A DNA stretch of 64,000 bases from IMG/VR virus record IMGVR_UViG_3300019360_000147, positions 1 through 64,000 of that record. The stretch is one strand, 5' to 3'. Numbering within the stretch: position 1 is the stretch's first letter; every line of letters starts with the position of its first letter. The position numbers and the translations under genes were made by a program. Below the pieces are notes generated by a model, which did no database searches, had not been told where the DNA came from, and saw only the letters and a list, made by a program, of their open reading frames with translations. The DNA is from a virus. Shown one piece after another: positions 3 to 51,047 of the stretch.

Positions 3-671
3 GCCTACGTGAGGCCGGTCTTGGAGGATCTCGCCTCGGGCAAGGGGCGCCTGCTGAAGGTGTCCTTTCTCTTTGAGCGGCCTGGCCGCAAAGTCTTCGC
101 CTTGGTGTGCTACGAGCGAACGCTGATGATCCCGGTGCCAGGAGATCGGGAGGCGACCCTCGGTCCGCTGGAGGTGGATGGGTCGCTGTACCTCCGGGCC
201 ACGCTGGAGAATGGACGGCCCTTCGTGGAAAATTACGCGGAGCGCATCCTGCGCTGGCTCCAGATGAAGCAGCATTTTGCAGGGCTGCACAAGCGCCTGC
301 GACTGCAACGGCGCCAGAGCGGGTCCGGGTGGAGGCAGAGATATCGGCGGGATCTGCTGCGCGTGGGATCGTTCGAGGCCTGGGCGCATGGCAGACTCCA
401 GGAATTGTCGGCCGACGTAGTGGAGACATGCCGGCGCCTCGGGATCGGGAAGCTGGCGGTCGGGCCGATGGAATTCGGCGAGTTGCCCATGGCGAAGCTG
501 ATCGGGATGCTGACCTACAAATGCGAGGAGGCTGGAATCAGCCTGGTCCGGTTCGATCCGGTCCAGCCGACGACGGAGCGGGCTATCGAGGCGCCAATTC
601 GCAAGCGGGGCCGGAAACTCGCCAAGGCCCGGCAAGCCCTCTCGGATCTGCGGGATGTGATCCAGCCGTAA
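3..671 (+). CDS. TnpB/Cas12-like RuvC-fold protein, apparently nuclease-dead, 5' partial
   Basis: The reading frame is open through the left window edge, so the N-terminus is missing; the GTG at 9 is probably internal. The visible 220 residues follow the C-terminal topology of TnpB/Cas12 nucleases: a strand ending ATLGPLEVDG where RuvC-I should be, a long Arg/Lys-rich bridge-like helix, a strand KLAVGPMEFGEL where RuvC-II should be, then LIGMLTYKCEEAGISLVRFDP, which resembles the conserved LxYKAEEAGI..V..DP segment. The RuvC-I Asp and RuvC-II Glu positions appear replaced (Leu and Gly in my alignment), and the protein ends without the CxxC zinc ribbon or the RuvC-III Asp. A CRISPR array lies 182 bp downstream on the same strand. 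By analogy with TldR and Cas12m I infer an RNA-guided binder rather than a cutter. The family call is by pattern only. Confidence 0.6.
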   Translation, partial: AYVRPVLEDLASGKGRLLKVSFLFERPGRKVFALVCYERTLMIPVPGDREATLGPLEVDGSLYLRATLENGRPFVENYAERILRWLQMKQHFAGLHKRLRLQRRQSGSGWRQRYRRDLLRVGSFEAWAHGRLQELSADVVETCRRLGIGKLAVGPMEFGELPMAKLIGMLTYKCEEAGISLVRFDPVQPTTERAIEAPIRKRGRKLAKARQALSDLRDVIQP

Positions 672-853
672 ATGCCGCGAACCCCGAGAGGCCAGTTCAG
701 GCCCAGGAGATTCGCGGCAGGCGGAGAGGCCACGGAAACCACGAATTACAGAGAGGAGGCGATAGGCAGGCAGGTGGGAGATTGTGTCGGAACGTCCGGT
801 TCGCGGAAAGATGGGTGTGGGGCATCAGAATTCCAGCGATTGCGAGAGGGTGA
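672..853 (+). other. CRISPR leader / possible guide-scaffold RNA region with a degenerate repeat
   Basis: This stretch separates the effector stop from the first full repeat. Positions 821-846 look like a shortened repeat: GGCATCAGAATTCCAG followed by CGATTGCGAG, sharing the repeat's first four bases, an AATTCC/AATCC core and its last nine bases. A seven-base gap then precedes repeat 1. Positions 784-791 (GTGTCGGA) match the reverse complement of the repeat and could be a weak anti-repeat. No convincing gene is seen; frames running through it continue into the array and are artefacts. It probably acts as a leader, and a tracrRNA-like transcript is possible. Confidence 0.4.
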
Positions 854-1381
854 GGCACAATCGAATCCGACACTCAGAGGGGATTGCGAGAGGTGCGCGC
901 ATGACCGAGCGGATCCTCCCGCACGGCACAATCGAATCCGACACTCAGAGGGGATTGCGAGCATGATCCCTTGGCACGGATGTTCCCTCCCCCGCGGCAC
1001 AATCGAATCCGACACTCAGAGGGGATTGCGAGCATGACAAGGATGGAAACAAGCTGTACGCGTTCCAGGCACAATCGAATCCGACACTCAGAGGGGATTG
1101 CGAGCGCACCCCCCTCATCAGGAATCACCTCCCTTCCCGGCACAATCGAATCCGAAACTCAGAGGGGATTGCGAGCGCTACGCGTGGGCATATGGCAATC
1201 GCGTTTCAGGCACAATCGAATCCGAAACTCAGAGGGGATTGCGAGTTGTCGTGGTACAGCGTGTAGCTGGCGATGTTCCCGGCACAATCGAATCCGAAAC
1301 TCAGAGGGGATTGCGAGAGAGCAGGCTGTGAACTAGCCGCTCGGCTTTCGGCACAAGCGAATCCGAAACTCAGAGGGGATT
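854..1381 (+). CRISPR. CRISPR array 1: 8 repeats, 7 spacers
   Basis: Repeats of 37 bp start at 854, 925, 996, 1068, 1139, 1209, 1281 and 1350. They begin GGCACAATCGAATCCG and end GGGGATTGCGAG. Spacers are 34, 34, 35, 34, 33, 35 and 32 bp and are mutually unrelated. Repeats 1-4 read GACAC at positions 16-20 and repeats 5-8 read GAAAC. The last repeat has a T-to-G change (CACAAGCG) and loses its final five bases, which suggests a leader on the left and transcription rightward. AATCC at repeat positions 11-15 can pair with GGATT at 28-32. The ATTGCGAG end resembles the 3' handle of many CRISPR repeats. The array sits directly behind the RuvC-fold gene, with no adaptation genes in the window. Confidence 0.95.
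1033..1067 (+). CRISPR. Spacer 3, matching a gene inside this window
   Basis: This 35-bp spacer equals positions 50886-50920 except for its third base (T here, C there). The target lies on the same strand in a structural-region gene. Confidence 0.95.
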
Positions 1382-1399
1382 TCTGATCAGAAAGGAGAG
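1380..1399 (+). promoter_or_regulatory. Palindrome plus Shine-Dalgarno fused to the terminal CRISPR repeat
   Basis: The last repeat runs into the perfect 14-bp palindrome TTTCTGATCAGAAA (1380-1393), which overlaps the strong ribosome binding site AAAGGAGAG (1391-1399) of the ATG at 1405. The same junction occurs at the end of both mini-arrays. The palindrome could form a hairpin that controls ribosome access or marks the end of the pre-crRNA. Confidence 0.7.
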
Positions 1400-2503: not shown

Positions 2504-3602
2504 GGTTCTGCTGATCTCTCCTCTGAGAGGAGCGGTCTCAGGGATCGAATCGGCGACGAGGATGATCCTCGACAGCCCGTTGGTGATCCACTGGGAGATC
2601 AGCCATCTCGATGCCTGGACCTCGCGGGCGAACCGTGAACGGGGCTGGCTGAGCTGGGGGAGCCTGCGGCGGTTCACGAAACTACTGTGGGTCGTGCGAC
2701 AGGCCGTGCGGGAAGTCAAGCCGCAGGTGGCGTGGATTCCGATGGCGAGCAATCGCCTGGGCTTCCTCAAGTTCGCGATGCTGGCAACGGTGGTCGGTGT
2801 CCCCGTGATCGGGAAGTATGGGGGGGACGCCTTCGCCACTTTCTACGCAACGCAGGCTGGTCCGGTGCGGGATCTGATCCGCACCGTCCTTCGCCGCTGC
2901 GCTGCGGTTCTCGTCGAAGCCGAATGTCTGATGCCCCAGTTCTACAGCCTCGTCCCCAGTTACAATGTTCGCTGGGCCCACCTCGGCCTCGACCCCGGCG
3001 CGTCTCCGCTCCAGCACCGGTCTCGACCCGCCAGGAATGTCCTCTTCATCGGCCACATCTCCCGGGCCAAGGGGGCCGTTGATTTGCTCGCCGCCATGCC
3101 TGCCGTCAGCAAAGCCATCCCCGGAGCCCGGCTTGTTCTCCTGGGGGAACACCTGCGGCGGGAGCGGAGCCTCGTGCATCTCCACGACCGGGACGCCGGC
3201 TGGCAGGCGGTCAAAGCGAGACCCGCGAACGTGGAAGCCCCTGGGATCCTGACCGGTCCGGCGAAGCGGCATGCGCTGGCGGAGGCGGATGTGTTCTGTC
3301 TGCCGTCGGCGTCGGAGGGGTTCCCTGTGGCGGTGTTGGAAGCGATGGCGGCGGGACTTCCGCTCGTGACCACGACTGCGGGAGCCATGGGCGAGGTCCT
3401 GAAGGACGGGGTGAATGTTCGCTTCGTGCCGTATGGAAACCCTGGGCGACTCGCCGAGGTGCTGAGCGACCTGCTGTCGCACGCGGGACGGTATGCCCGA
3501 CAGCGAATGGCAGCAGAGAATCGGCGGGCGGTGGAGGAAAGGTTCACGCTGGAATGCTTTGCGGAGGGAGTCCGGAAGGCCCTCGCGGATGTCGTGCGAT
3601 GA
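2490..3602 (+). CDS. Glycosyltransferase family 4
   Basis: 370 residues from the ATG at 2490; an earlier in-frame start at 2433 would add 19 residues that do not belong to the fold. GT-B layout: N-terminal MARPKVLLISPL strand, a glycine hinge, and a C-terminal nucleotide-sugar half with VLFIGHISRAKGAVDLL, ADVFCLPSASEGFPVAVLEAMAAGLP (the E-x7-E signature) and a closing helix. It should transfer a sugar from a nucleotide donor in a polysaccharide or glycolipid pathway. First of a long run of glycan genes; its stop overlaps the next start. Confidence 0.88.
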   Translation: MARPKVLLISPLRGAVSGIESATRMILDSPLVIHWEISHLDAWTSRANRERGWLSWGSLRRFTKLLWVVRQAVREVKPQVAWIPMASNRLGFLKFAMLATVVGVPVIGKYGGDAFATFYATQAGPVRDLIRTVLRRCAAVLVEAECLMPQFYSLVPSYNVRWAHLGLDPGASPLQHRSRPARNVLFIGHISRAKGAVDLLAAMPAVSKAIPGARLVLLGEHLRRERSLVHLHDRDAGWQAVKARPANVEAPGILTGPAKRHALAEADVFCLPSASEGFPVAVLEAMAAGLPLVTTTAGAMGEVLKDGVNVRFVPYGNPGRLAEVLSDLLSHAGRYARQRMAAENRRAVEERFTLECFAEGVRKALADVVR

Positions 3603-4297
3603 TTGCCTGGGTGCTTGGCGTCCCGATCTCGCGGCTCTCTGTGGATTCGACGCTCGGGTGTCTGACTGGATGGGTACGGGAGATGACGAGTCCCTGCGTC
3701 GTGAATCTCGTGAACGCCCACTCGGTCGTCGAGGCGCACAGGAACTCGGAACACATGCGGGCACTTCGCTGGTCACACATCAACCTCGCCGACGGCTGGC
3801 CGGTTGCTCGCATGGCCCGGGCGCCACGGATCGCAGGGGCTGATCTGATGCTCGCGGTCGCCCGGCATCCGGACCTGGGAAAGATGCGGCATGTGTTGCT
3901 GGGGGGATTCGGGGTGGCGTACACGGCGGCGATGCGGCAGTGCGTAGACGCGGCAGGGCACAGTCCGCTGAATCTGCGGTCGCCGGCTATTCCAGCCGCG
4001 GCTCCCGAGAGCAGCCTCCTCGAAATGGCGAACGGCCAACAGTGCGACATCCTCTGGGTCTCCCTCGGGTGCCCCAAGCAGGAAATCTGGATGCACGAGA
4101 ACCGGGACAAGCTGAAGGCCAAGGTCGTCATCGGCGTGGGGGCGGCATTCGATTTCCTCGCGGGGCGGGTTCGACGAGCTCCGGTCTGGGTGCAGCGGAT
4201 CGGACTGGAGTGGGCGTGGAGGATCTGGGCAGACCCGCAGCGGTGGCGTCGGCAGATCAGTGCCGTGATTGGGTTCGCCCGGTTGCTGCTTCGGTAG
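3599..4297 (+). CDS. WecG/TagA/CpsF-family glycosyltransferase (GT26)
   Basis: 232 residues, start in the ATGA overlap. Family hallmarks are present in order: VLGVPIS near the N-terminus, NLVNAHSVVEA, LADGWPVARMAR, LLGG, LGCPKQEIWMHEN, and GVGAAFDFLAGRVRRAPVW near the C-terminus. The family (WecG, TagA) transfers N-acetylmannosamine or a related sugar onto a polyprenyl-linked GlcNAc at the inner membrane. It sits beside a polyprenyl-phosphate sugar transferase, consistent with early steps of a lipid-linked glycan. Donor specificity cannot be read. Confidence 0.88.
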   Translation: MIAWVLGVPISRLSVDSTLGCLTGWVREMTSPCVVNLVNAHSVVEAHRNSEHMRALRWSHINLADGWPVARMARAPRIAGADLMLAVARHPDLGKMRHVLLGGFGVAYTAAMRQCVDAAGHSPLNLRSPAIPAAAPESSLLEMANGQQCDILWVSLGCPKQEIWMHENRDKLKAKVVIGVGAAFDFLAGRVRRAPVWVQRIGLEWAWRIWADPQRWRRQISAVIGFARLLLR

Positions 4298-4903
4298 ATG
4301 GGCTGGCGCGTGTTCGACATCGTCGCCGGTCTGGTCGGCCTGATCATCTTCGCCCCGATCATCGCCCTGTGCGCGATCGCGACCGTGCTGGATTCCGGAC
4401 TGCCGCCGTTCAACGGGTCATGGAGGCTGGGGAAACATGGCACGCCCTTTCGGTGTTGGAAAATCCGGACGCTGAGGAATGACCACGAAGCCGTTCTTGC
4501 CAGACATCTTGCGACGTGCCCAGAAGCGCAGAAAGAGTGGGAGAGGTACGCGAAACTCAGTCACGATCCCCGTGTCACGCGAATCGGCGGATTCTTCCGC
4601 ACAACATCTCTCGACGAGATGCCGCAACTGTGGAATATCCTCCAAGGGAAGATGGCCGTCTTCGGCCCGCGGCCTTTCCTCTGTCGAGAGAGGACCCTGC
4701 TTGGAGTGTGGGCAGATGATTTGGCTGCGGTGCTCCCCGGCGTCATCTCCTACTACACCGCCCACGGCCGGAGCCGATTGCCCGTGGAACGGCGAATCAG
4801 GCTCGATGCGAAATTCGCGAGGCGGATGGCAAAGCCGGGCGTGAAGTGGCACGCACTGGTGCGGACGGTGAGGCGGTTGATCGACCGAAAGGGAGCCGTG
4901 TAA
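4298..4903 (+). CDS. Bacterial sugar transferase (polyprenyl-phosphate initiating glycosyltransferase)
   Basis: 201 residues, the short core form of the WbaP/WcaJ/PglC family. An N-terminal re-entrant membrane helix ([19 protein letters not shown]) is followed by KIRTLRND, then [26 protein letters not shown] and MAVFGPRP, the classic family motifs. It should move a sugar-1-phosphate from a nucleotide sugar to undecaprenyl phosphate, priming O-antigen, capsule or glycoprotein oligosaccharide. Directly abuts the WecG-type gene, so the phage encodes both a priming and a following step. Confidence 0.9.
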
Positions 4904-5202
4904 TGGAGACCCCGCTCGATTTCTATGCCGACGGGTTCCAAGTGATCACGACGGCGTACGGGTGCAGCCTGAGCTTGGTGCGATCGTTGCCCGGGCCGCC
5001 CCGAATGGGCAAGACGCAAGAGGGCGAGGTGCTGGCCATCGCCCGCATGAGCCTGGAGCACCTGAAGTTGCTGATCTTTACCCTGCATCGGCAGCTCAGT
5101 CAGCACGAGCGGGAGCACGGGGTCGCGGTGGATGTGCCGCAGACCGCGCTGAACGGGATGCAGATCGGGCGGGAGGATTGGGAGAAGTTCTGGAGGGGAT
5201 GA
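4903..5202 (+). CDS. Hypothetical protein, DUF3467-like
   Basis: 99 residues, start overlapping the TAA of the previous gene. Pattern DGFQVITTAYGCSLSLVRS...ARMSLEHLKLLIFTLHRQLSQHE resembles small DUF3467-type domains (a short beta meander followed by a helix that begins SPxHAK). Similarity is weak and judged by eye. The neighbours are glycosyltransferases, and its stop overlaps the next start. Confidence 0.6.
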   Translation: METPLDFYADGFQVITTAYGCSLSLVRSLPGPPRMGKTQEGEVLAIARMSLEHLKLLIFTLHRQLSQHEREHGVAVDVPQTALNGMQIGREDWEKFWRG

Positions 5203-6134
5203 TGCGCGTGTTGTTGCTCATTGACAAGGCCGACTGGTCCTACCAGCAAATTGCCGAGGCTCTCGTTAAGCAGAATACGGATCGGAGTCTGGAATTGGAA
5301 ATCCTTGCCCTGAAAGGCCACACCAGATTGTTCCGATCAAAATATCTGGAGTATGATCGGACGCTTATATTCGGGCATCAGTTGCTGTCTATGATTCCCC
5401 CCCTTACCCGGTTCGTTATGAACGACGGGGATTGCCTCATTGGAATCCATAGTCATCATTCGTGGGATCCAGATCTCCGCACTACACCGGATGAAGATAT
5501 CGAGCCCCCAAGTCAACTCATCAGCACATTGAGAGGCTTTCGTGCCGTCAACTGCGTCTCGCAGCGGCTGTTCAATTTGTTCGCCGGTAGGGGACTCAAT
5601 CTATATCTCACCCCAAACGGCGTTGACTGCGACCGCTTCAAGCCGACGCAGCCGCTTTCGACCGAGGGACCACTGCGAGTTGGTGTGGCCTATACGCCGA
5701 AGCATGACAAACGCAAGGGGGTGGAGGAGTTCATTCGGCCCGCCTGTGAGAAGGTCGGGGCAATCCTCGTCGAGGCGAAGGCCCGGAGCGAGCAGCATGT
5801 GCGGCCGGAGGATATGCCCGCGTGGCACAATTCCTACGACGTGTATGTATGTGCATCCAGCTCGGAGGGATTTTCACTCGCGGTCCTCGAGGCCGCAGCC
5901 TGCGGGCGCCCGGTGATCTCGACGCGGGTGGGAGGGAGTACCGAGTTGATGAGACGCGTACATGATGGGTGTCTCGTAGACAGAACGTCCGATGCGATCG
6001 CAGAAGCACTCGTCCTATACCGAGATGATCGAATTCGGCTCGCCATGGATGGACTGAGCATACGAAGGCTTGTAGAGGAAGATTGGTCCTGGAAGCGGCG
6101 AGCAGTGGCATGGTTGGACTTCATGAGGAGCTAG
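5199..6134 (+). CDS. Glycosyltransferase (GT4-like)
   Basis: 311 residues; ATGATG at 5199/5202 gives two possible starts. N-terminal Rossmann half MMRVLLLIDKADWS; C-terminal half contains LYLTPNGVDCDRFKP, DVYVCASSSEGFSLAVLEAAACGRPVIST (E-x7-E) and VGGSTELM, the usual GT4 donor-binding features. Base composition in 5330-5640 is slightly more AT-rich than its neighbours. It likely adds a sugar to the same glycan as its neighbours. Confidence 0.87.
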   Translation: MMRVLLLIDKADWSYQQIAEALVKQNTDRSLELEILALKGHTRLFRSKYLEYDRTLIFGHQLLSMIPPLTRFVMNDGDCLIGIHSHHSWDPDLRTTPDEDIEPPSQLISTLRGFRAVNCVSQRLFNLFAGRGLNLYLTPNGVDCDRFKPTQPLSTEGPLRVGVAYTPKHDKRKGVEEFIRPACEKVGAILVEAKARSEQHVRPEDMPAWHNSYDVYVCASSSEGFSLAVLEAAACGRPVISTRVGGSTELMRRVHDGCLVDRTSDAIAEALVLYRDDRIRLAMDGLSIRRLVEEDWSWKRRAVAWLDFMRS

Positions 6135-6138
6135 GATT

Positions 6139-6327
6139 ATGGAGGCCTGCAAGATTTGCGTGGAGCCGTGTACGGCCTGCGGGATGGATCCGCATGATCC
6201 CCGGTGTGGGATCTGCGGGATGCTGCACCAAGAGCCTGTGAGCCACGCCGGGGTGGCGTATTCGACCTGTGTGCGGTGTGGGAGGAGAGTATCGTCGCAG
6301 CGGCTGTTGACGTCCTCCCCGGACTGA
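6139..6327 (+). CDS. Cysteine-rich zinc-ribbon-like small protein, tail contributed by the mini-array leader
   Basis: 62 residues with cysteines spaced in pairs (CKIC, CTAC, CGIC, CVRC), suggesting one or two zinc ribbons. The last seven codons and the TGA lie inside the 56-bp leader shared by the two mini-arrays (6307-6362). The native C-terminus was therefore probably replaced when that element arrived. A similar Cys4 micro-protein is at 13655. Function unknown. Confidence 0.55.
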   Translation: MEACKICVEPCTACGMDPHDPRCGICGMLHQEPVSHAGVAYSTCVRCGRRVSSQRLLTSSPD

Positions 6328-6362
6328 AGTCCGGGGCGTCCGCGCCCATGGAGAATCTGTGC
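6307..6362 (+). repeat. Mini-array leader, copy 1 (56 bp)
   Basis: Identical to 10489-10544. Starts TTGACGTCCTCCCC and ends GAATCTGTGC, directly before the first repeat. Contains a 9-bp hairpin at 6317-6336 (CCCCGGACT-GA-AGTCCGGGG), extended by GACG/CGTC outside. Such a hairpin is typical of IS200/IS605-family ends and also of small RNA structures. Confidence 0.85.
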
Positions 6363-6464
6363 GGCACAAGCGAATCCGAAACTCAGAGGGGATTGCGAGG
6401 CGCACGACCTCCGACTACATCCGCAAGCTCGCGGCACAATCGAACCCGAAGCTCAGAGGGGATT
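6363..6464 (+). CRISPR. CRISPR mini-array 2: 2 repeats, 1 spacer
   Basis: One full 37-bp repeat (6363-6399), one 33-bp spacer (6400-6432) and a terminal repeat (6433-6464) truncated at the same base as in array 1. The full repeat has CACAAGCG; the terminal repeat has CGAACCCGAAGC, both drifted from the consensus. It is embedded between glycan-module genes on the same strand. The spacer could be read as coding sequence (DYIRKLA) but no match was found in this window. Confidence 0.9.
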
Positions 6465-6481
6465 TCTGATCAGAAAGGAGA
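6463..6481 (+). promoter_or_regulatory. Terminal palindrome and Shine-Dalgarno-like site of mini-array 2
   Basis: Same TTTCTGATCAGAAA palindrome (6463-6476) running into AAAGGAGAG as in array 1. Here no start codon follows within range, because a second hairpin intervenes before the next gene. Confidence 0.7.
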
Positions 6482-6490
6482 GGTCAACTA

Positions 6491-6510
6491 CCCCGCGCTA
6501 AAGTGCGGGG
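6491..6510 (+). repeat. Hairpin CCCCGCGC-TAAA-GTGCGGGG
   Basis: Eight-pair stem with one G-U pair and a TAAA loop, 14 bases before a T5 run. It could be a poor terminator, but its form and its pairing with the GACTGAAGTC hairpin at 6317 look like the right-end hairpin of an IS200/IS605-type element. It is absent from mini-array 3. Confidence 0.55.
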
Positions 6511-6535
6511 TCTCTTGGCCGACTTTTTAGGAACT

Positions 6536-10488: not shown

Positions 10489-10544
10489 TTGACGTCCTCC
10501 CCGGACTGAAGTCCGGGGCGTCCGCGCCCATGGAGAATCTGTGC
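10489..10544 (+). repeat. Mini-array leader, copy 2 (56 bp)
   Basis: Exact copy of 6307-6362 with the hairpin at 10499-10518. The flanking upstream sequence is unrelated to that of copy 1, so the identity is confined to the leader and repeat unit. Confidence 0.85.
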
Positions 10545-10719
10545 GGCACAATCGAGTCCGAAACTCAGAGGGGATTGCGAGCCAACCGGACCGTCTGCCC
10601 AGCCCCGCACGATCGGGCACAATCGAATCCGAAACTCAGAGGGGATTGCGAGTTGACGTAGCGTGAGAGGTTCCCAACCAGGGTTGTGGCACAATCGAAT
10701 CCGAAACTCAGAGGGGATT
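10545..10719 (+). CRISPR. CRISPR mini-array 3: 3 repeats, 2 spacers
   Basis: Repeats at 10545-10581 (CGAGTCCG variant), 10616-10652 and 10688-10719 (truncated terminal copy). Spacers are 10582-10615 (34 bp) and 10653-10687 (35 bp). All use the GAAAC variant found in the distal half of array 1. No strong match to either spacer was found in the window. Confidence 0.92.
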
Positions 10720-10738
10720 TCTGATCAGAAAGGAGAGA
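10718..10738 (+). promoter_or_regulatory. Terminal palindrome and Shine-Dalgarno of mini-array 3
   Basis: TTTCTGATCAGAAA at 10718-10731 runs into AAGGAGAGAGGAG, upstream of the ATG at 10753. The palindrome-plus-ribosome-site module is thus conserved at all three arrays and feeds a gene in two of them. Confidence 0.7.
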
Positions 10739-23038: not shown

Positions 23039-23065
23039 ACACGGTAGGAGGGTTGTGAGCAGTTG

Positions 23066-24232
23066 ATGGAAAAGTTGAAAGCCTACAAGACCGAGCTTGA
23101 CCCCAACAACGTCCAGCGAACCTTGCTGGCAAAACATGCTGGCGCTGCGCGGTTCGCCTGGAACTGGGCGCTCGGTCGCCGTATCGAGGAATACAAACCC
23201 ACAGGCAAGTCAAGTAATGTCATCGAGCAGCATCGGCAGTTGAACGCGCTGAAATCGACCGAGTTCCCCTGGATGTACGAGGTCAGCAAGTGTGCCCCGC
23301 AAGAAGCACTGCGAGACTTGGACAAGGCGTTCAGGAACTTCTTTGCGAAGCGAGCCAAGTATCCAAGGTTCAAGAGCAAGAAGCGTGGCCTGGGCGGGTT
23401 TCGCCTGACAGGCAGCATCACCATCGAAGCAGATAGGATCAAGTTGCCTCGCCTTGGCTGGTTGCGCCTGAAGGAATCGGGATACCTGCCGACAGACGCC
23501 AAAATCAACAGCGTCACTGTCAAAGAACGGGCGGGGCGCTGGTTTGTTAGCGTCCAGGTTGAGGAGCGGTTTGCCGTCACCGAAAACCAAGGTCCGGCAA
23601 TCGGCCTTGATCTGGGCCTGAAGTCGTTCGTGGTTGGTTCTGATGGATCGTCTCTTGAATCGCCGAAGCCTCTCCTGCGATCGCTCAGGCGATTGCAGAG
23701 GTTAGCCAGGCAACACTCTCGAAAACAGAAAGGATCAATGAATCGTCGCAAGTCGGCGAAGCGACTTGCCACACTGCACTACCGGATCAGCTGCCAACGC
23801 GCTGACTTCATCCATAAGGCCACAAGTGAACTGGCAAAAACCAAGTCAGTTATCGTGGTTGAGGATTTGAATGTCGGCGGGATGCTCAAGAATCGCTGCC
23901 TTGCTAGGCCCATCGGCGATGCTGGATGGTCTGAGTTCGTCAGGCAGCTTGAGTACAAGTCGGCGTGGAATGGCGGTAGCGTGGTCAAAGCTGGCAGGTT
24001 CTACCCGTCCACGAAAACATGTTCGGCTTGTGGCATGATCAAGGACGAAATGCCATTGTCCGTGAGGACATATTGTTGCGGCGGTTGCGGGCTAGTCATC
24101 GACCGGGACGTGAACGCCGCAAGGAACCTTGTGAGACTGAGTACCGTCAGTTCGACGGGATTTCAAGCCTGTGGAGATTCGCCGTTGGGCGGGTCCGCGA
24201 AGCAGGAACCGAGCGTCATGAACAATGAGTAA
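23066..24232 (+). CDS. tnpB: TnpB RNA-guided nuclease (IS200/IS605 family)
   Basis: 388 residues from ATG 23066. Full-length with all active-site positions: RuvC-I Asp in GLDLGLKS (about 181), RuvC-II Glu in VVEDLNVGG (about 266), zinc ribbon CSACG...CGGCG (320-339), and RuvC-III Asp in DRDVNAARN (348). N-terminal helix-turn-helix opening KAYKTELDPNNVQ. No tnpA is nearby. The sequence between the stop and 24253 (GAGTAAGTTTCGGAGAACGG) resembles the end of an IS605-type omega-RNA/right end, so a guide would be taken from just downstream. Confidence 0.93.
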   Translation: MEKLKAYKTELDPNNVQRTLLAKHAGAARFAWNWALGRRIEEYKPTGKSSNVIEQHRQLNALKSTEFPWMYEVSKCAPQEALRDLDKAFRNFFAKRAKYPRFKSKKRGLGGFRLTGSITIEADRIKLPRLGWLRLKESGYLPTDAKINSVTVKERAGRWFVSVQVEERFAVTENQGPAIGLDLGLKSFVVGSDGSSLESPKPLLRSLRRLQRLARQHSRKQKGSMNRRKSAKRLATLHYRISCQRADFIHKATSELAKTKSVIVVEDLNVGGMLKNRCLARPIGDAGWSEFVRQLEYKSAWNGGSVVKAGRFYPSTKTCSACGMIKDEMPLSVRTYCCGGCGLVIDRDVNAARNLVRLSTVSSTGFQACGDSPLGGSAKQEPSVMNNE

Positions 24233-37041: not shown

Positions 37042-39198
37042 ATGACCGCAGAGATCACCCCAGGCAAGCCGACGGTGCAAGACGAGGGGACGCCGCTCGG
37101 AGCCTTCGACAAGATCAATTTTGTCGGGGCGGGGGTCGCGGTCTCGGTGACGGGCGATCTGGCGACGGTCAGCGTCGGCGGGGGCGGTGGGGGCAGCGTC
37201 ACGAGTCAGCAGTTCTCTGCCTTGAGCCAGGCCGTGTCGGTCCTCTCGCAGCAGGTCTCGGTATTGTCGCAGGGCATTTCGGTCGTCTCCCAAGCGCTCT
37301 CAAACGAGATCAGCAACCGAGCATCCGCCGACAACGTTCTCAGCCAGGCCATCTCGGTCATTTCGCAGCAAGTCAGTGTGCTTTCCCAGGCCCACTCGGC
37401 CTTGTCCCAGGCCGTGTCGGTCCTCTCGCAGACGGTCTCAGTGCATTCTCAGCGGTTCAGTACCTTGGCCGGCGGGGGCGCTTCGACCTACCTCATGAAA
37501 TCGGGGGCGACCGACTTCGATTGGAAGTGGGTCTCGATTACGACCGGCGGGGCGGCTTCGGCGGATGTGACGTCCCAACACCTTTCCGTTTTCTCCCAAG
37601 CGATTTCGGTCCTCTCCCAGAGCCATTCGGCCTTGAGCCAGCAGGTGTCGGCACTCTCCTCGCAAGTCTCCGTCGTCTCCGTGGCGGTCACCTCGGTCGA
37701 TGCCCGCGTGGATGCGGTTTCGCAGCAGGTGTCCGTCCTTTCGCAAGCCCACTCCGTGCTGTCGCAGGCGGTGTCGGTGCTCTCCCAGGCACATTCAGTC
37801 CTCTCGCAACGCATGAGTACGCTCGCAGGCGGCGGGGCGTCGACCTATCTGATGAAGTCTGGGGCCACGGATTACGACTGGAAGTGGGTCTCGATCACCG
37901 CGGGAGGAGCCGCGTCTGCGGACGTGACCTCGCAGCATATCAGCGTCCTGAGCCAGGCGATTTCCGTGCTCTCGCAGGGGCTGTCCGTCGTCAGCACTGC
38001 GGCCAGTGCGGCGGATGCCCACGCCGCCGTGGCCTCGGCGGCCGCGACCAGTGCCGATGCGCACGCCGCTGCCGCTTCGGCAGCGGCTACCTCGGTGGAT
38101 GCCAGGCTCGACACCGTGTCTCAACAGGTGTCTGTCCTCAGTCAAGCGCACTCGGTCCTTTCCCAAGCGGTCTCGGTCCTGTCACAGGGCCACTCCGCCC
38201 TCAGCCAGCAAGTGTCAGCGCTTTCCACCCAGGTGTCGGTCGTGTCGGTCGCCGTCACGTCTGTGGACACCCGGGTCAATACCGTGTCGCAACAAGTCTC
38301 CGTGCTGAGTCAGGCACACTCGGTCCTCTCGCAGGCCGTCTCCGTCCTCAGTCAGGGGCATTCCGCACTCTCGCAGCAGGTCTCGGCGTTATCCACTCAG
38401 GTTTCAGTGGTCTCGGTGGCGGTGACGTCCGTCGATACCAGAGTCAACACCGTATCTCAGCAGGTGAGCGTGCTCTCGCAGGCCGTCTCCGTCCTCAGTC
38501 AGGCGCATTCGGTCCTCAGTCAGGCGCATTCAGCCCTTTCCCAGCAAGTCTCTGCCTTGTCGAGTCAGGTGTCGGTCGTGTCGGTGGCCGTGACCTCGGT
38601 CGACACGCGGGTGAATACGGTCTCGCAGGCCGCCTCAGTGCTGAGTCAAGCCGTTTCAGTGCTCTCCCAGGCCGTCAGCGTTCTCTCGCAGGCGGTGTCG
38701 GTGCTTTCCAACAAGGTTTCGACCCTCCAGGCACCCACGATCAACGTCGTGGGCGGGATCCAGACCATTTCGACGGCCACATTGACCACGGTCAGCGCCC
38801 TGAGTCTGTCCGTCAGTGCCGGCGGGACCTACGAAATGTACGCAACGCTCCTGTACACGCTATCGGCGAATGCCGCGCCCATCCGCCTGGGCCTGAACTT
38901 CCCCGCAATGACCCGGATCGCCGGGCAGATCAAAGGGTGGGTCTCCGCGAACGCCCAGGGGGGCGGATTCCTCTCGACACAGTCCGAGCAGGTGATGTTT
39001 ACGGGGGATTCCGCTTCGGGATCCACGCTGTACTCCGCCGCGGGCGGGAATTCGGCCGATGTAATGCTGGCGGGGTACTACGCGTTGATGAAAGCCAGTG
39101 CGGGCGGGACCATTCATATCCTGGCGGCTGGCAGCACGACCGTAGGGGCCATTCACATCCAGCCGAGCTCGTTTATCAAGCTGTTCCAAATCGCCTGA
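37042..39198 (+). CDS. Serine-rich heptad-repeat tail fiber
   Basis: 718 residues. N-terminal domain (1-55) then about 500 residues of near-perfect 7-residue repeats SVLSQAV/SVLSQQV, with Val and Leu in a/d positions, giving a long trimeric coiled coil. Two matching segments, STLAGGGASTYLMKSGAT (near 140 and 260), interrupt it and look like fiber knobs. An Ala-rich ADAHAAxASAAATS segment follows, and a C-terminal globular domain occurs from about 570. Ser makes up roughly two of every seven residues. A second frame (37038-39221) also lacks stops because of the repeated codons, but its product has no fold-like features. Confidence 0.82.
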   Translation: MTAEITPGKPTVQDEGTPLGAFDKINFVGAGVAVSVTGDLATVSVGGGGGGSVTSQQFSALSQAVSVLSQQVSVLSQGISVVSQALSNEISNRASADNVLSQAISVISQQVSVLSQAHSALSQAVSVLSQTVSVHSQRFSTLAGGGASTYLMKSGATDFDWKWVSITTGGAASADVTSQHLSVFSQAISVLSQSHSALSQQVSALSSQVSVVSVAVTSVDARVDAVSQQVSVLSQAHSVLSQAVSVLSQAHSVLSQRMSTLAGGGASTYLMKSGATDYDWKWVSITAGGAASADVTSQHISVLSQAISVLSQGLSVVSTAASAADAHAAVASAAATSADAHAAAASAAATSVDARLDTVSQQVSVLSQAHSVLSQAVSVLSQGHSALSQQVSALSTQVSVVSVAVTSVDTRVNTVSQQVSVLSQAHSVLSQAVSVLSQGHSALSQQVSALSTQVSVVSVAVTSVDTRVNTVSQQVSVLSQAVSVLSQAHSVLSQAHSALSQQVSALSSQVSVVSVAVTSVDTRVNTVSQAASVLSQAVSVLSQAVSVLSQAVSVLSNKVSTLQAPTINVVGGIQTISTATLTTVSALSLSVSAGGTYEMYATLLYTLSANAAPIRLGLNFPAMTRIAGQIKGWVSANAQGGGFLSTQSEQVMFTGDSASGSTLYSAAGGNSADVMLAGYYALMKASAGGTIHILAAGSTTVGAIHIQPSSFIKLFQIA

Positions 39199-39238
39199 GG
39201 CGCGGCGCACAGCGCGCATAGCGCAGCGCGGAAGAGCA

Positions 39239-40270
39239 ATGCCAGGAATCAGCCACCAATTCTCAATCGTGTCGGCGTGGGTCAAGGGACTCAGCCAGAC
39301 CGTGTCGGCGGTGAGTGCTGGCTACGTCAGCTCAGACGCTCGGGTGGATGCCCTCTCGGCGGCGATCTCCGTCCTCTCGCAGCAGATTTCGGTGCTCTCG
39401 CAGCAGGTGTCCGTCCTGTCCTCCCAGCCGCCGGGCAGCGGGAGCGTGACCAGTACGGAACTCTCGGCCGTGAGCGCCCAGGCGGCGTCGGCGATAAACG
39501 TCGTCAGCCAAGCCGTCTCCGTCCTGAGTCAGCAGGTTTCGACCCTGTCGCAAGCGGTGAGCGTGGTCAGCCAAGCGGTGTCGGTCCTCAGTCAAGCCGT
39601 CTCCGCCCTCTCTAGTCAAGTCAGTACGGTCTCGGGGAATGTCACCTCGGTGGAGGTCCATGCCTCGACGGCCTCGGCAGCCGCCACGTCGGCCGATGCC
39701 CATGCGGCCGCCGCGTCGGCGGCCGCGACCTCCGTGGACGCCCGGCTGAACTCCGTGGTCTCGACATTCCTCTCGGCCACGGGGCAGGTCGTTCCTCAGA
39801 TCCGGTCCCGCGGGAACGTGGTGTCGGTCATCTCGGCTGGGACCCTCGTGGATATCGCCAGTCTCAGTGTCTCGGTGGCCGGCGGCGATGCGATCTACAA
39901 GATCGACGGGGCCGTGGCCTTCGAGAAAGCGACCAGCGGCGGGTGTGCCTTCGGCATTTCCACGCCCGCGTTGGGGGCTGGCGGCAGTTACGTGGAAATG
40001 GCGGTGGCAGTGCTGGTTCAGCAGGCCGGGGCCATCGGCGCCGCAGCGACGTATGCCTGGGGTCGCGTCGCCCTCAGCGCGATCGCGGCCGCGAATACTG
40101 CGGTCGTCTCGGCGTCCGTCCTGAACATCAACGCCTTACGCTTCATGCACTTCGAGGGGATGCTGGCGGTCAGCACGGCGGGCACGGTGCAGATCATGGG
40201 GAAGGGCAGCGTCGCGGGGGATTCGCTGAGCGTCCGGGGCGGATACATCCGGGCGTACCGGATTGGGTAG
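39239..40270 (+). CDS. Second heptad-repeat fiber, shorter
   Basis: 343 residues. Same SQAVSVLSQ heptads and ADAHAAAASAAATSVDARL segment as the upstream fiber, followed by a different C-terminal beta domain (residues 180-343) with GDAIYKIDGAVAFEKATSGG. A duplication of fiber architecture with a divergent tip, suggesting two receptor-binding specificities. Confidence 0.8.
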   Translation: MPGISHQFSIVSAWVKGLSQTVSAVSAGYVSSDARVDALSAAISVLSQQISVLSQQVSVLSSQPPGSGSVTSTELSAVSAQAASAINVVSQAVSVLSQQVSTLSQAVSVVSQAVSVLSQAVSALSSQVSTVSGNVTSVEVHASTASAAATSADAHAAAASAAATSVDARLNSVVSTFLSATGQVVPQIRSRGNVVSVISAGTLVDIASLSVSVAGGDAIYKIDGAVAFEKATSGGCAFGISTPALGAGGSYVEMAVAVLVQQAGAIGAAATYAWGRVALSAIAAANTAVVSASVLNINALRFMHFEGMLAVSTAGTVQIMGKGSVAGDSLSVRGGYIRAYRIG

Positions 40271-49290: not shown

Positions 49291-50283
49291 ATGGCTGACA
49301 CCACAGTCGCGACGGGTGATGCCGTCGCGGTCAAGCGATGGGATCCCAAGTTCATCAGGCAGGCGAGCAAGAAGATCTTTTTCGCCGCCATGACGGGCAA
49401 GGATGAGAACAACATCGTCCAGAGCAAGCTCGACCTGACCAAGGGGCCGGGGGATCGGATCACGATGCCGCTCTTCCCGCGGTTCTCCGGGGCCGGCGTA
49501 CAGGGCGATGTGGACATTGAGGGGAATGAGGAGGCGATTACGCCGCAGAGTGACAACGTGTCCATCGACTTCTACGCCCAGGCCTTCCGGGTCAGCGGGC
49601 TGATGACGGAGCAGAGAAGCCCCGACGATCTCCGGCGGGCGGCGCGGGAGCAGTTGTCGATCTGGCTGGGGGAGAAGGTGGACCAGCTTGGCTTCGATGC
49701 CATCGAGTCGAGCCCGACTCTGATCTATTCCGAGAACTCGGACACGCTGGTCAAGTCCGGCCCGACCACCTCGATCGTGGCCGCTGATCTGATCGAGCCG
49801 CACATGGCGAGCTTCCTGCGCCATGCCGCGAACACCCAGAGTCCCAAGATCAAGTGCATCAAGCAGGGCGGGCGGGATGTGTTCGTGCTCCTGATGCACC
49901 CGCACTGTGCCTACGACATGAAGAATGACAGCACCTGGCAGAACTTCCACCGGGACGCGGACGTGCGCGACGCCAAGGACAACTACCTGTTCAAGGCCGG
50001 GATGGGGACGATCGACGACGTCCTGCTGTATGAGCATGAGAACGTCGCCGTCGCGACCACCTGGGGGGCGGGGGCGGTCTATGGGGCGCGGAACAAGTTC
50101 ATGGGGGCGCAGGCTATGGCGCTCGCGTGGGCGCGGTTCCCGTTCCTGGTGGAGAAGCGTTTCCAGTATGGCACGAAGTGGGGGGCCATGGTGGGGGCGG
50201 TGCTCGGGTTCCGGAAGCTTGTTTACGATAGCAAGGACTTTGGGCTGGCCGAATTGAGGACAGCACGAACGAATCTAAACTGA
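49291..50283 (+). CDS. Major capsid protein (N4-gp56 / DUF4043-like)
   Basis: 330 residues behind AAGGAGAATTC. KRWDPKFIRQASKKIFFAAMTGKDENNIVQSKLDLTKGPGDRITMPLF and QAFRVSGLMTEQRSPDDLRRAAREQLSIWL match the N4 gp56-family layout. HK97-like fold expected. Positioned after scaffold, as usual. Confidence 0.82.
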   Translation: MADTTVATGDAVAVKRWDPKFIRQASKKIFFAAMTGKDENNIVQSKLDLTKGPGDRITMPLFPRFSGAGVQGDVDIEGNEEAITPQSDNVSIDFYAQAFRVSGLMTEQRSPDDLRRAAREQLSIWLGEKVDQLGFDAIESSPTLIYSENSDTLVKSGPTTSIVAADLIEPHMASFLRHAANTQSPKIKCIKQGGRDVFVLLMHPHCAYDMKNDSTWQNFHRDADVRDAKDNYLFKAGMGTIDDVLLYEHENVAVATTWGAGAVYGARNKFMGAQAMALAWARFPFLVEKRFQYGTKWGAMVGAVLGFRKLVYDSKDFGLAELRTARTNLN

Positions 50284-50342: not shown

Positions 50343-51047
50343 ATGCCAACGGAGGAGAAAGCGCGGCAACCTTCCACAGCGGCAACGGCGGTGGCGGACC
50401 CGCCGCCGTCAGATAGGAAACTGGTTCAAGTCGACGCCGATGTCTGGGCGGAGATCGTCCGAAGGCAGGGGGCCATGGAGCGGATGCTGGAGCAGATCCA
50501 GGCCGAGCGTGCCGCCGGTGGTCCGACGCCGAACATCATCAGACCGCCCGTCGTCGCCAAGACCATGCCGCCGAACTACGTGGTCTGGCTGGGAACTGAG
50601 CCCCGCTCGGGCGATTTGTATCTGGGGGCCAAGGGCACGGTCACCACGGTCAACTCCGAGGAGACGACCGTGATGACGGACGGGGACGGCCACGGCAAGC
50701 CGCGGACGATCCGGGGGCAGCTCTGTGCGTTCCGGACGACCGAGTACTCGGATTCGGGGATGAAAAGCATCGATTTCATCCGCCGATGCCCCTCGGGGCA
50801 CAAGTATGCCGGTCGGCTGTTCGCGGAGTTGGACTGTCCGGAGCATGCGGCGTACCTGCATCTGATCGCGCCGGACGGCAAAGGGCACGACAAGGATGGA
50901 AACAAGCTGTACGCGTTCCACCTCATCGGGGACTGGATTCCCAAGTACCAGAACCTGGTGCGGTTCCGCATGAACGCGCGGAAAGCCGCCGAGGTGGATG
51001 TGGACTTTGTCGCCTCGGATGGCGTGGAGATGCCGTTCGAGGAGTAG
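50343..51047 (+). CDS. Structural-region protein targeted by CRISPR spacer 3
   Basis: 234 residues behind the strong GAAGGAGGAGG site. N-terminal disordered part with a coiled coil (AEIVRRQGAMERMLEQIQAERA), then a beta domain (PNYVVWLGTEPRSGDLYLGAKGTVTTV...) of unknown type. Positions 50886-50920, coding GHDKDGNKLYAFH, match spacer 3 with one difference. Likely head decoration or completion. Confidence 0.72.
   Translation: MPTEEKARQPSTAATAVADPPPSDRKLVQVDADVWAEIVRRQGAMERMLEQIQAERAAGGPTPNIIRPPVVAKTMPPNYVVWLGTEPRSGDLYLGAKGTVTTVNSEETTVMTDGDGHGKPRTIRGQLCAFRTTEYSDSGMKSIDFIRRCPSGHKYAGRLFAELDCPEHAAYLHLIAPDGKGHDKDGNKLYAFHLIGDWIPKYQNLVRFRMNARKAAEVDVDFVASDGVEMPFEE
50886..50920 (+). other. Protospacer-like match to CRISPR spacer 3
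   Basis: 34 of 35 bases identical to 1033-1067; the difference is at spacer base 3 (C here). Upstream flank AAGGG, downstream flank CCTCATC on this strand. In a type V-like effector read from the left, the mismatch would be in the seed. Confidence 0.95.

What the first reader, a model, noticed from the sequence alone, without database searches (positions are those of the whole stretch)
1033..1067. Spacer 3 matches this phage's own structural gene, 34/35, with the mismatch in the likely seed
1033-1067 equals 50886-50920 except at spacer base 3. Either the spacer targets a related phage and this copy escapes by a seed mismatch, or it allows controlled binding of the phage's own late gene. Flanks are AAGGG upstream and CCTCATC downstream.
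Basis: seen in the sequence. Interest (0 to 1): 0.93.

Follow-up and report, generated by a model that had tools for sequence, protein, structure and literature searches.

The report
Dead Cas12-like phage array targets phage gene
An uncultivated virus of bacteria carries small CRISPR-like arrays next to a gene for a Cas12-like protein that has lost its DNA-cutting parts, and one array guide matches the virus's own gene beside its capsid gene at all but one silent base, which looks like a weapon against close relatives that its owner escapes.

Summary
The match is real. Spacer 1033-1067 equals 50886-50920 at 34 of 35 bases; about 1e-12 such matches are expected by chance. The difference (T/C, spacer base 3) is silent, CAT/CAC, in an ORF directly downstream of the major capsid gene. 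The other nine spacers match nothing in the contig.

A homologue occurs in a second, unrelated 76.6-kb phage, also inactivated and also beside a repeat-guide array. This is therefore a phage-borne, nuclease-dead, probably RNA-guided module.

Best reading: guides block transcription of related phages' genes, and the owner's copy differs silently in the seed. Published parallels: archaeal viral mini-arrays whose own loci carry point mutations (PMC6858448), huge-phage spacers against other phages' structural genes and a 'dCas14' (PMC7162821), and TldR's 6-nt seed (PMC13418256). Self-regulation is not excluded, but the relative's guides do not match its own contig, and a silent mismatch could have been removed at no protein cost. 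No exact target was found in any collection, and no PAM could be derived.

The parts
3..671 (+). Nuclease-dead Cas12f/TnpB-like protein, C-terminal 222 aa (5' part beyond the contig start)
   Evidence: guided_TnpB E 1.5e-4; phrog_506 5.7e-4; homologue L017 E 2e-21; AF2 model pLDDT 69.6, Foldseek top 19 all Cas12f, best E 4.7e-7; catalytic residues absent
672..853 (+). Intergenic leader between effector gene and array; possible tracrRNA region (not demonstrated)
   Evidence: position only; anti-repeat pairing no better than shuffles
854..1386 (+). Main CRISPR-like array: eight 37-nt repeats (the last degenerate at its 3' end), seven spacers of 32-35 nt
1033..1067 (+). Spacer 3, the self-matching guide
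   Evidence: 34/35 to 50886-50920
6363..6469 (+). Mini-array 2: two repeats, one spacer (6400-6432)
10545..10724 (+). Mini-array 3: three repeats, two spacers (10582-10615, 10653-10687)
6307..6362 (+). Leader of mini-array 2 with a CCCCGGACTGAAGTCCGGGG hairpin, IS200/IS605-like
   Evidence: identical to 10489-10544; similar hairpin at tnpB/tnpA loci of plasmids
10489..10544 (+). Leader of mini-array 3, same hairpin
50343..51047 (+). Gene holding the matching site (234 aa, no known family), directly downstream of the major capsid gene
50886..50920 (+). Self protospacer; the guide has the coding-strand sequence, so it would pair with the template strand
49291..50283 (+). Major capsid protein gene
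   Evidence: phrog_334 E 3e-54, PF13252 E 3e-38

Best explanation
The phage carries an RNA-guided DNA-binding module made of a nuclease-dead Cas12f/TnpB-like protein and three CRISPR-like arrays. Repeat-spacer transcripts arm the dead protein, which binds matching DNA of competing phages and blocks transcription without cutting. Spacer 3 is aimed at the gene next to the capsid gene in a close relative. The carrier's own copy has a silent base change at guide position 3, inside the expected seed, which spares it. Shown: the arrays, the match and the silent mismatch, the Cas12f-like fold, the lost catalytic residues, and the recurrence of the module in an unrelated phage. Inferred: that the dead protein uses these guides, that it represses transcription, that relatives with the exact target exist, and that the mismatch prevents binding.
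For: Effector: guided_TnpB match, Foldseek PDB top hits all Cas12f, all RuvC catalytic residues missing in window protein and L017 homologue. Effector-array pairing recurs in a phage sharing nothing else detectable. No Cas1. Silent T/C mismatch at guide position 3. No self matches for the other nine spacers or for the 11 guides of the homologous array. Published precedents: PMC6858448 (own orthologous loci mutated to avoid self-targeting), PMC7162821 (phage spacers against structural genes of other phages; dCas14), PMC11013384 (Cas12m protects by binding rather than cutting), PMC13418256 (6-nt TldR seed).
Against: No relative with an exact protospacer was found. A single self match cannot separate escape from drift: a mismatch falls in the first six bases by chance in about 6 of 35 cases. 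No PAM, tracrRNA or promoter was demonstrated. The N-terminal half of the effector is not in the contig. No spacer-acquisition gene (Cas1) was found, so the origin of the spacers is unexplained.
Confidence: 0.5

Rival explanations
1. Self-regulation: the dead effector with guide 3 binds the phage's own gene next to the capsid gene and tunes its expression, the mismatch weakening but not abolishing binding.
For: 34/35 match to the phage's own head-region gene. The guide would pair with the template strand. Dead TnpB relatives (TldR) act as RNA-guided repressors, and their repression was retained with naturally occurring guide-target mismatches (PMC13418256).
Against: The mismatch is silent and inside the seed, so a perfect match would be free if binding were selected. 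The target is inside the gene, about 540 bases from the start, not at a promoter. No other spacer and no guide of the homologous system self-matches.
Confidence: 0.18
2. The arrays are served by a host Cas system, as in archaeal viral mini-arrays, and the dead TnpB-like protein is a bystander or does something else.
For: Viral mini-arrays normally carry the host's repeats and use the host's Cas proteins (PMC11656645). The two mini-arrays lie away from the effector gene.
Against: The repeat was found in no genome of the GTDB collection apart from one chance hit inside a coding gene. The dead effector sits directly upstream of the main array, and its homologue is again beside an array.
Confidence: 0.14
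3. A worn-out self-match: the spacer came by accident from this phage lineage, and the guide or target has since drifted, with no present function.
For: One silent change in 35 bases fits neutral drift. The last repeat of each array is degenerate.
Against: The repeats are almost identical, and the module is kept in two unrelated phages, which suggests upkeep.
Confidence: 0.15

Closest known systems
Viral mini-CRISPR arrays of SPV1/SPV2 (Medvedeva et al. 2019, PMC6858448)
   Same: Virus-borne short arrays; spacers against close relatives; the carrier's own orthologous site carries a point mutation.
   Different: Those arrays use the host's Cas system; here a dead Cas12f-like gene adjoins the array. 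Exact targets in relatives are shown there, not here.
TldR, TnpB-like nuclease-dead repressors, phage-encoded (PMC13418256)
   Same: TnpB-derived, catalytic residues lost, phage-encoded; 6-nt seed at the 5' end of the guide.
   Different: TldR loci are described with their own gRNA gene; here the guides are in multi-spacer arrays, and the protein stops before the zinc-finger/RuvC-III region.
Phage-encoded Cas14 (Cas12f) lacking a catalytic residue ('dCas14') and type V systems of huge phages (PMC7162821)
   Same: Phage-borne Cas12f-like effector predicted to repress rather than cut; compact arrays; acquisition genes mostly absent.
   Different: Those are phages mostly over 200 kb. Here the phages are about 75 kb, all catalytic residues plus the C-terminal region are gone, and similarity to solved Cas12f structures is seen only at fold level.
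Cas12m (subtype V-M; PMC11013384)
   Same: Naturally non-cutting Cas12 with an array, silencing mobile elements by binding.
   Different: No detectable sequence relationship to the window protein in the searches made; the loss of C-terminal motifs here is far more drastic.

Membership tests
CRISPR array | Near-identical direct repeats separated by unique spacers of similar length | tested here: met
   37-nt repeats, spacers 32-35 nt, ten unique spacers
CRISPR array | Spacer with a protospacer in mobile DNA | tested here: met
   Spacer 3 to 50886-50920, 34/35; the other nine have no match found
Cas12f/TnpB superfamily | RuvC-like fold with recognisable TnpB/Cas12f sequence | tested here: met
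   NCBIfam guided_TnpB E 1.5e-4 but below its curated cut-off; Foldseek E 4.7e-7 to Cas12f; model only moderately confident
Cas12f (subtype V-F) nuclease | Intact RuvC catalytic residues and zinc-finger/RuvC-III region | tested here: not met
   RuvC-I D, RuvC-II E (canonical and alternative position) and the RuvC-III region absent in window protein and L017 homologue
TldR (TnpB-like nuclease-dead repressor) | TnpB-derived protein with inactivated RuvC | tested here: met
TldR (TnpB-like nuclease-dead repressor) | Single gRNA adjacent to the gene, guide matching a promoter-region target | tested here: not met
   Guides lie in arrays; the one match is inside a coding region
TldR (TnpB-like nuclease-dead repressor) | RNA-guided transcriptional repression | not testable with these tools
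   needs experiment
Virus-borne mini-array for interviral conflict | Exact protospacer in a related virus | tested here: inconclusive
   No related virus in the collections
Virus-borne mini-array for interviral conflict | Own orthologous site mutated | tested here: met
   Silent T/C at guide position 3
Subtype V-M (Cas12m) | Cas12m effector homology | tested here: inconclusive
   No Cas12m hit among PDB structural matches listed; PADLOC 2023 models gave none

The most novel reading that the evidence does not exclude
A previously undescribed family of phage-borne, C-terminally truncated, nuclease-dead Cas12f/TnpB-like proteins works with multi-guide arrays as a programmable transcription silencer against competing phages. 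The carrier protects itself by silent seed mutations, or, less likely, uses the weakened match to tune its own head gene.
Probability: 0.35. Interest if true: 0.8.

Novelty: new variant of a known kind. Interest (0 to 1): 0.66.

Why it matters
If right, phages of ordinary size (about 75 kb) carry a non-cutting, multi-guide silencing system built from TnpB, bridging single-guide TldRs and CRISPR arrays. The one-base silent seed difference gives a direct test of how a phage aims such a system at close relatives without hitting itself.

Tried and rejected
Assembly or common-sequence artefact: the repeat and spacers were found nowhere else, and the Armatimonadota hit is a chance match in a coding gene. 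L011 and L012 were chance pattern matches, not arrays. Antisense RNA: with rightward transcription the guide has the same sense as the mRNA, so it cannot pair with it. tracrRNA anti-repeat at 672-853: pairing energy not better than shuffles (65 and 47 of 300 reach it). Rfam: no family found. Adaptation genes: no Cas1; no TnpA. Homologous small gene next to both arrays (1405-1758 and L017 4660-4983): similarity not significant. Single-sequence searches for the effector and the capsid protein in viral contigs found nothing; only the two-sequence alignment with a Bacteroides phage TnpB (L016) reached L017. A further search with the window/L017 alignment found only L017 itself, and L017's protein has no match in phage or plasmid records.

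Full report
Observation. The window is bases 1-64000 of a 73,725-bp IMG/VR virus record. It holds three arrays of the same 37-nt repeat on the + strand: 854-1386 with seven spacers, 6363-6469 with one, and 10545-10724 with two. Spacer 3 (1033-1067) matches 50886-50920 at 34 of 35 bases; such a match is expected about 1.5e-12 times by chance over all spacers and both strands. The single difference is T in the spacer against C in the gene at spacer base 3. It is codon position 3 of a His codon (CAT/CAC) in ORF 50343-51047, so it is silent. No other spacer matches the rest of the contig above chance.

Target. ORF 50343-51047 (234 aa) lies directly behind the major capsid gene 49291-50283. It has no match in Pfam, NCBIfam or PHROGs, in phage records, or in IMG/VR. 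'Structural gene' is therefore an inference from position. The portal is P22-like, and the phage has no near relative in the collections searched.

The neighbour of the array. ORF 3-671 is open at the contig start. It matches guided_TnpB (E 1.5e-4), the PHROG transposase family 506 and, weakly, Pfam Cas12f1-like_TNB. A two-sequence alignment with a Bacteroides phage TnpB (A2) reached a clear homologue, L017, in IMGVR_UViG_3300046710_000151 (76,583 bp): 29% identity over residues 10-216, E 2e-21. The AlphaFold2 model of the window fragment (pLDDT 69.6, pTM 0.61) has the 19 best PDB matches all to Cas12f, best E 4.7e-7, probability 1.00; TM-scores are modest (0.39-0.49 by query length), so the superposition is loose. 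Alignments with active TnpBs show that the RuvC-I Asp, the RuvC-II Glu (both the canonical and the alternative position) and the whole zinc-finger/RuvC-III region are lost in both the window protein and L017. The protein is therefore predicted to bind but not to cut.

Recurrence of the module. In L017 the dead protein (ORF 3323-4654) is followed by a small gene and by a repeat array with the conserved core GGAAGGAACTGAAGG, 11 units at 4992-5607 with variable stretches of 36-59 nt between cores. That phage has an HK97-like head set (terminase phrog_15, portal phrog_21, protease phrog_53, capsid phrog_29) and shares no other detectable protein with the window phage (tblastn E below 1e-4). The module thus appears in two unrelated phages with different repeats. 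The L017 guides do not match their own contig above chance. Neither record has Cas1.

Mechanism. The likely chain is: array transcripts are processed, guide RNAs bind the dead Cas12f-like protein, the complex binds a matching phage gene, and transcription is blocked. Shown here: the anatomy, the fold, the catalytic loss and the recurrence. Inferred: guide binding, repression and the identity of the victims. The array lies in the direction of the operon and its last repeat is the degenerate one, so rightward transcription is likely. The guide then has the coding-strand sequence and would pair with the template strand.

Why inter-phage targeting is preferred. A silent seed difference is what costless escape looks like; if self-binding were useful, the same silent site could be matched for free. 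TldR, a related dead TnpB, has a measured 6-nt seed (PMC13418256), and position 3 is inside it. In archaeal portogloboviruses the loci orthologous to the targets carry point mutations or deletions in the array-bearing virus (PMC6858448). Huge-phage spacers target structural genes of other phages, and one phage Cas14 lacks a catalytic residue and is proposed to repress (PMC7162821). Cas12m protects by binding (PMC11013384). The argument is not conclusive: with one mismatch, the seed is hit by chance in about 6 of 35 cases, and no exact target or PAM was found.

What could not be done. The genome collection allowed one scan, which gave only a chance hit. The 5' half of the effector gene lies outside the contig, and the contig ends do not overlap.

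Noticed in passing
window 1033-1349 (3' ends of spacers 3-7): Five of ten spacers carry TTYC in their last seven bases (P about 2e-6 against the contig background; the motif was chosen after seeing it), as if the acquisition or the repeat boundary favoured this end.
   Followed up: partly
window 6307-6362, 10489-10544 and 6483-6515: The two mini-arrays share an identical leader with an IS200/IS605-like hairpin found at tnpB/tnpA loci of plasmids, and mini-array 2 is followed by another such hairpin, so mini-arrays may have moved with, or been built from, TnpB element ends.
   Followed up: partly
window 1378-1399, 6461-6482, 10716-10737: All three arrays end in the same GATTTCTGATCAGAAAGGAGAG, a palindrome fused to a ribosome-binding-site-like stretch upstream of the next gene.
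   Followed up: partly
window 23063-24232 and contig 69491-70591 (minus strand, L009): Two further TnpB genes with catalytic motifs apparently intact lie in the same phage, with no TnpA in the contig.
   Followed up: partly
window 37207-39730: Two proteins made of many 21-nt (7-residue) repeats of the S-V-L-S-Q type, probably fibre or tail-like.
   Followed up: no
window 2433-31000: A long run of genes that look by eye like glycosyltransferases, methyltransferases and sugar-metabolism genes on the + strand, in which the mini-arrays are embedded (not tested by family search).
   Followed up: no
L016:772-1947, L018:3200-4381, L019:3167-4345, L020:620-1798: Phage TnpBs of the IGYNKEWKQ/NNQNFV/YKCE/EESYTS clade, the closest active-looking relatives of the dead family.
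   Followed up: partly
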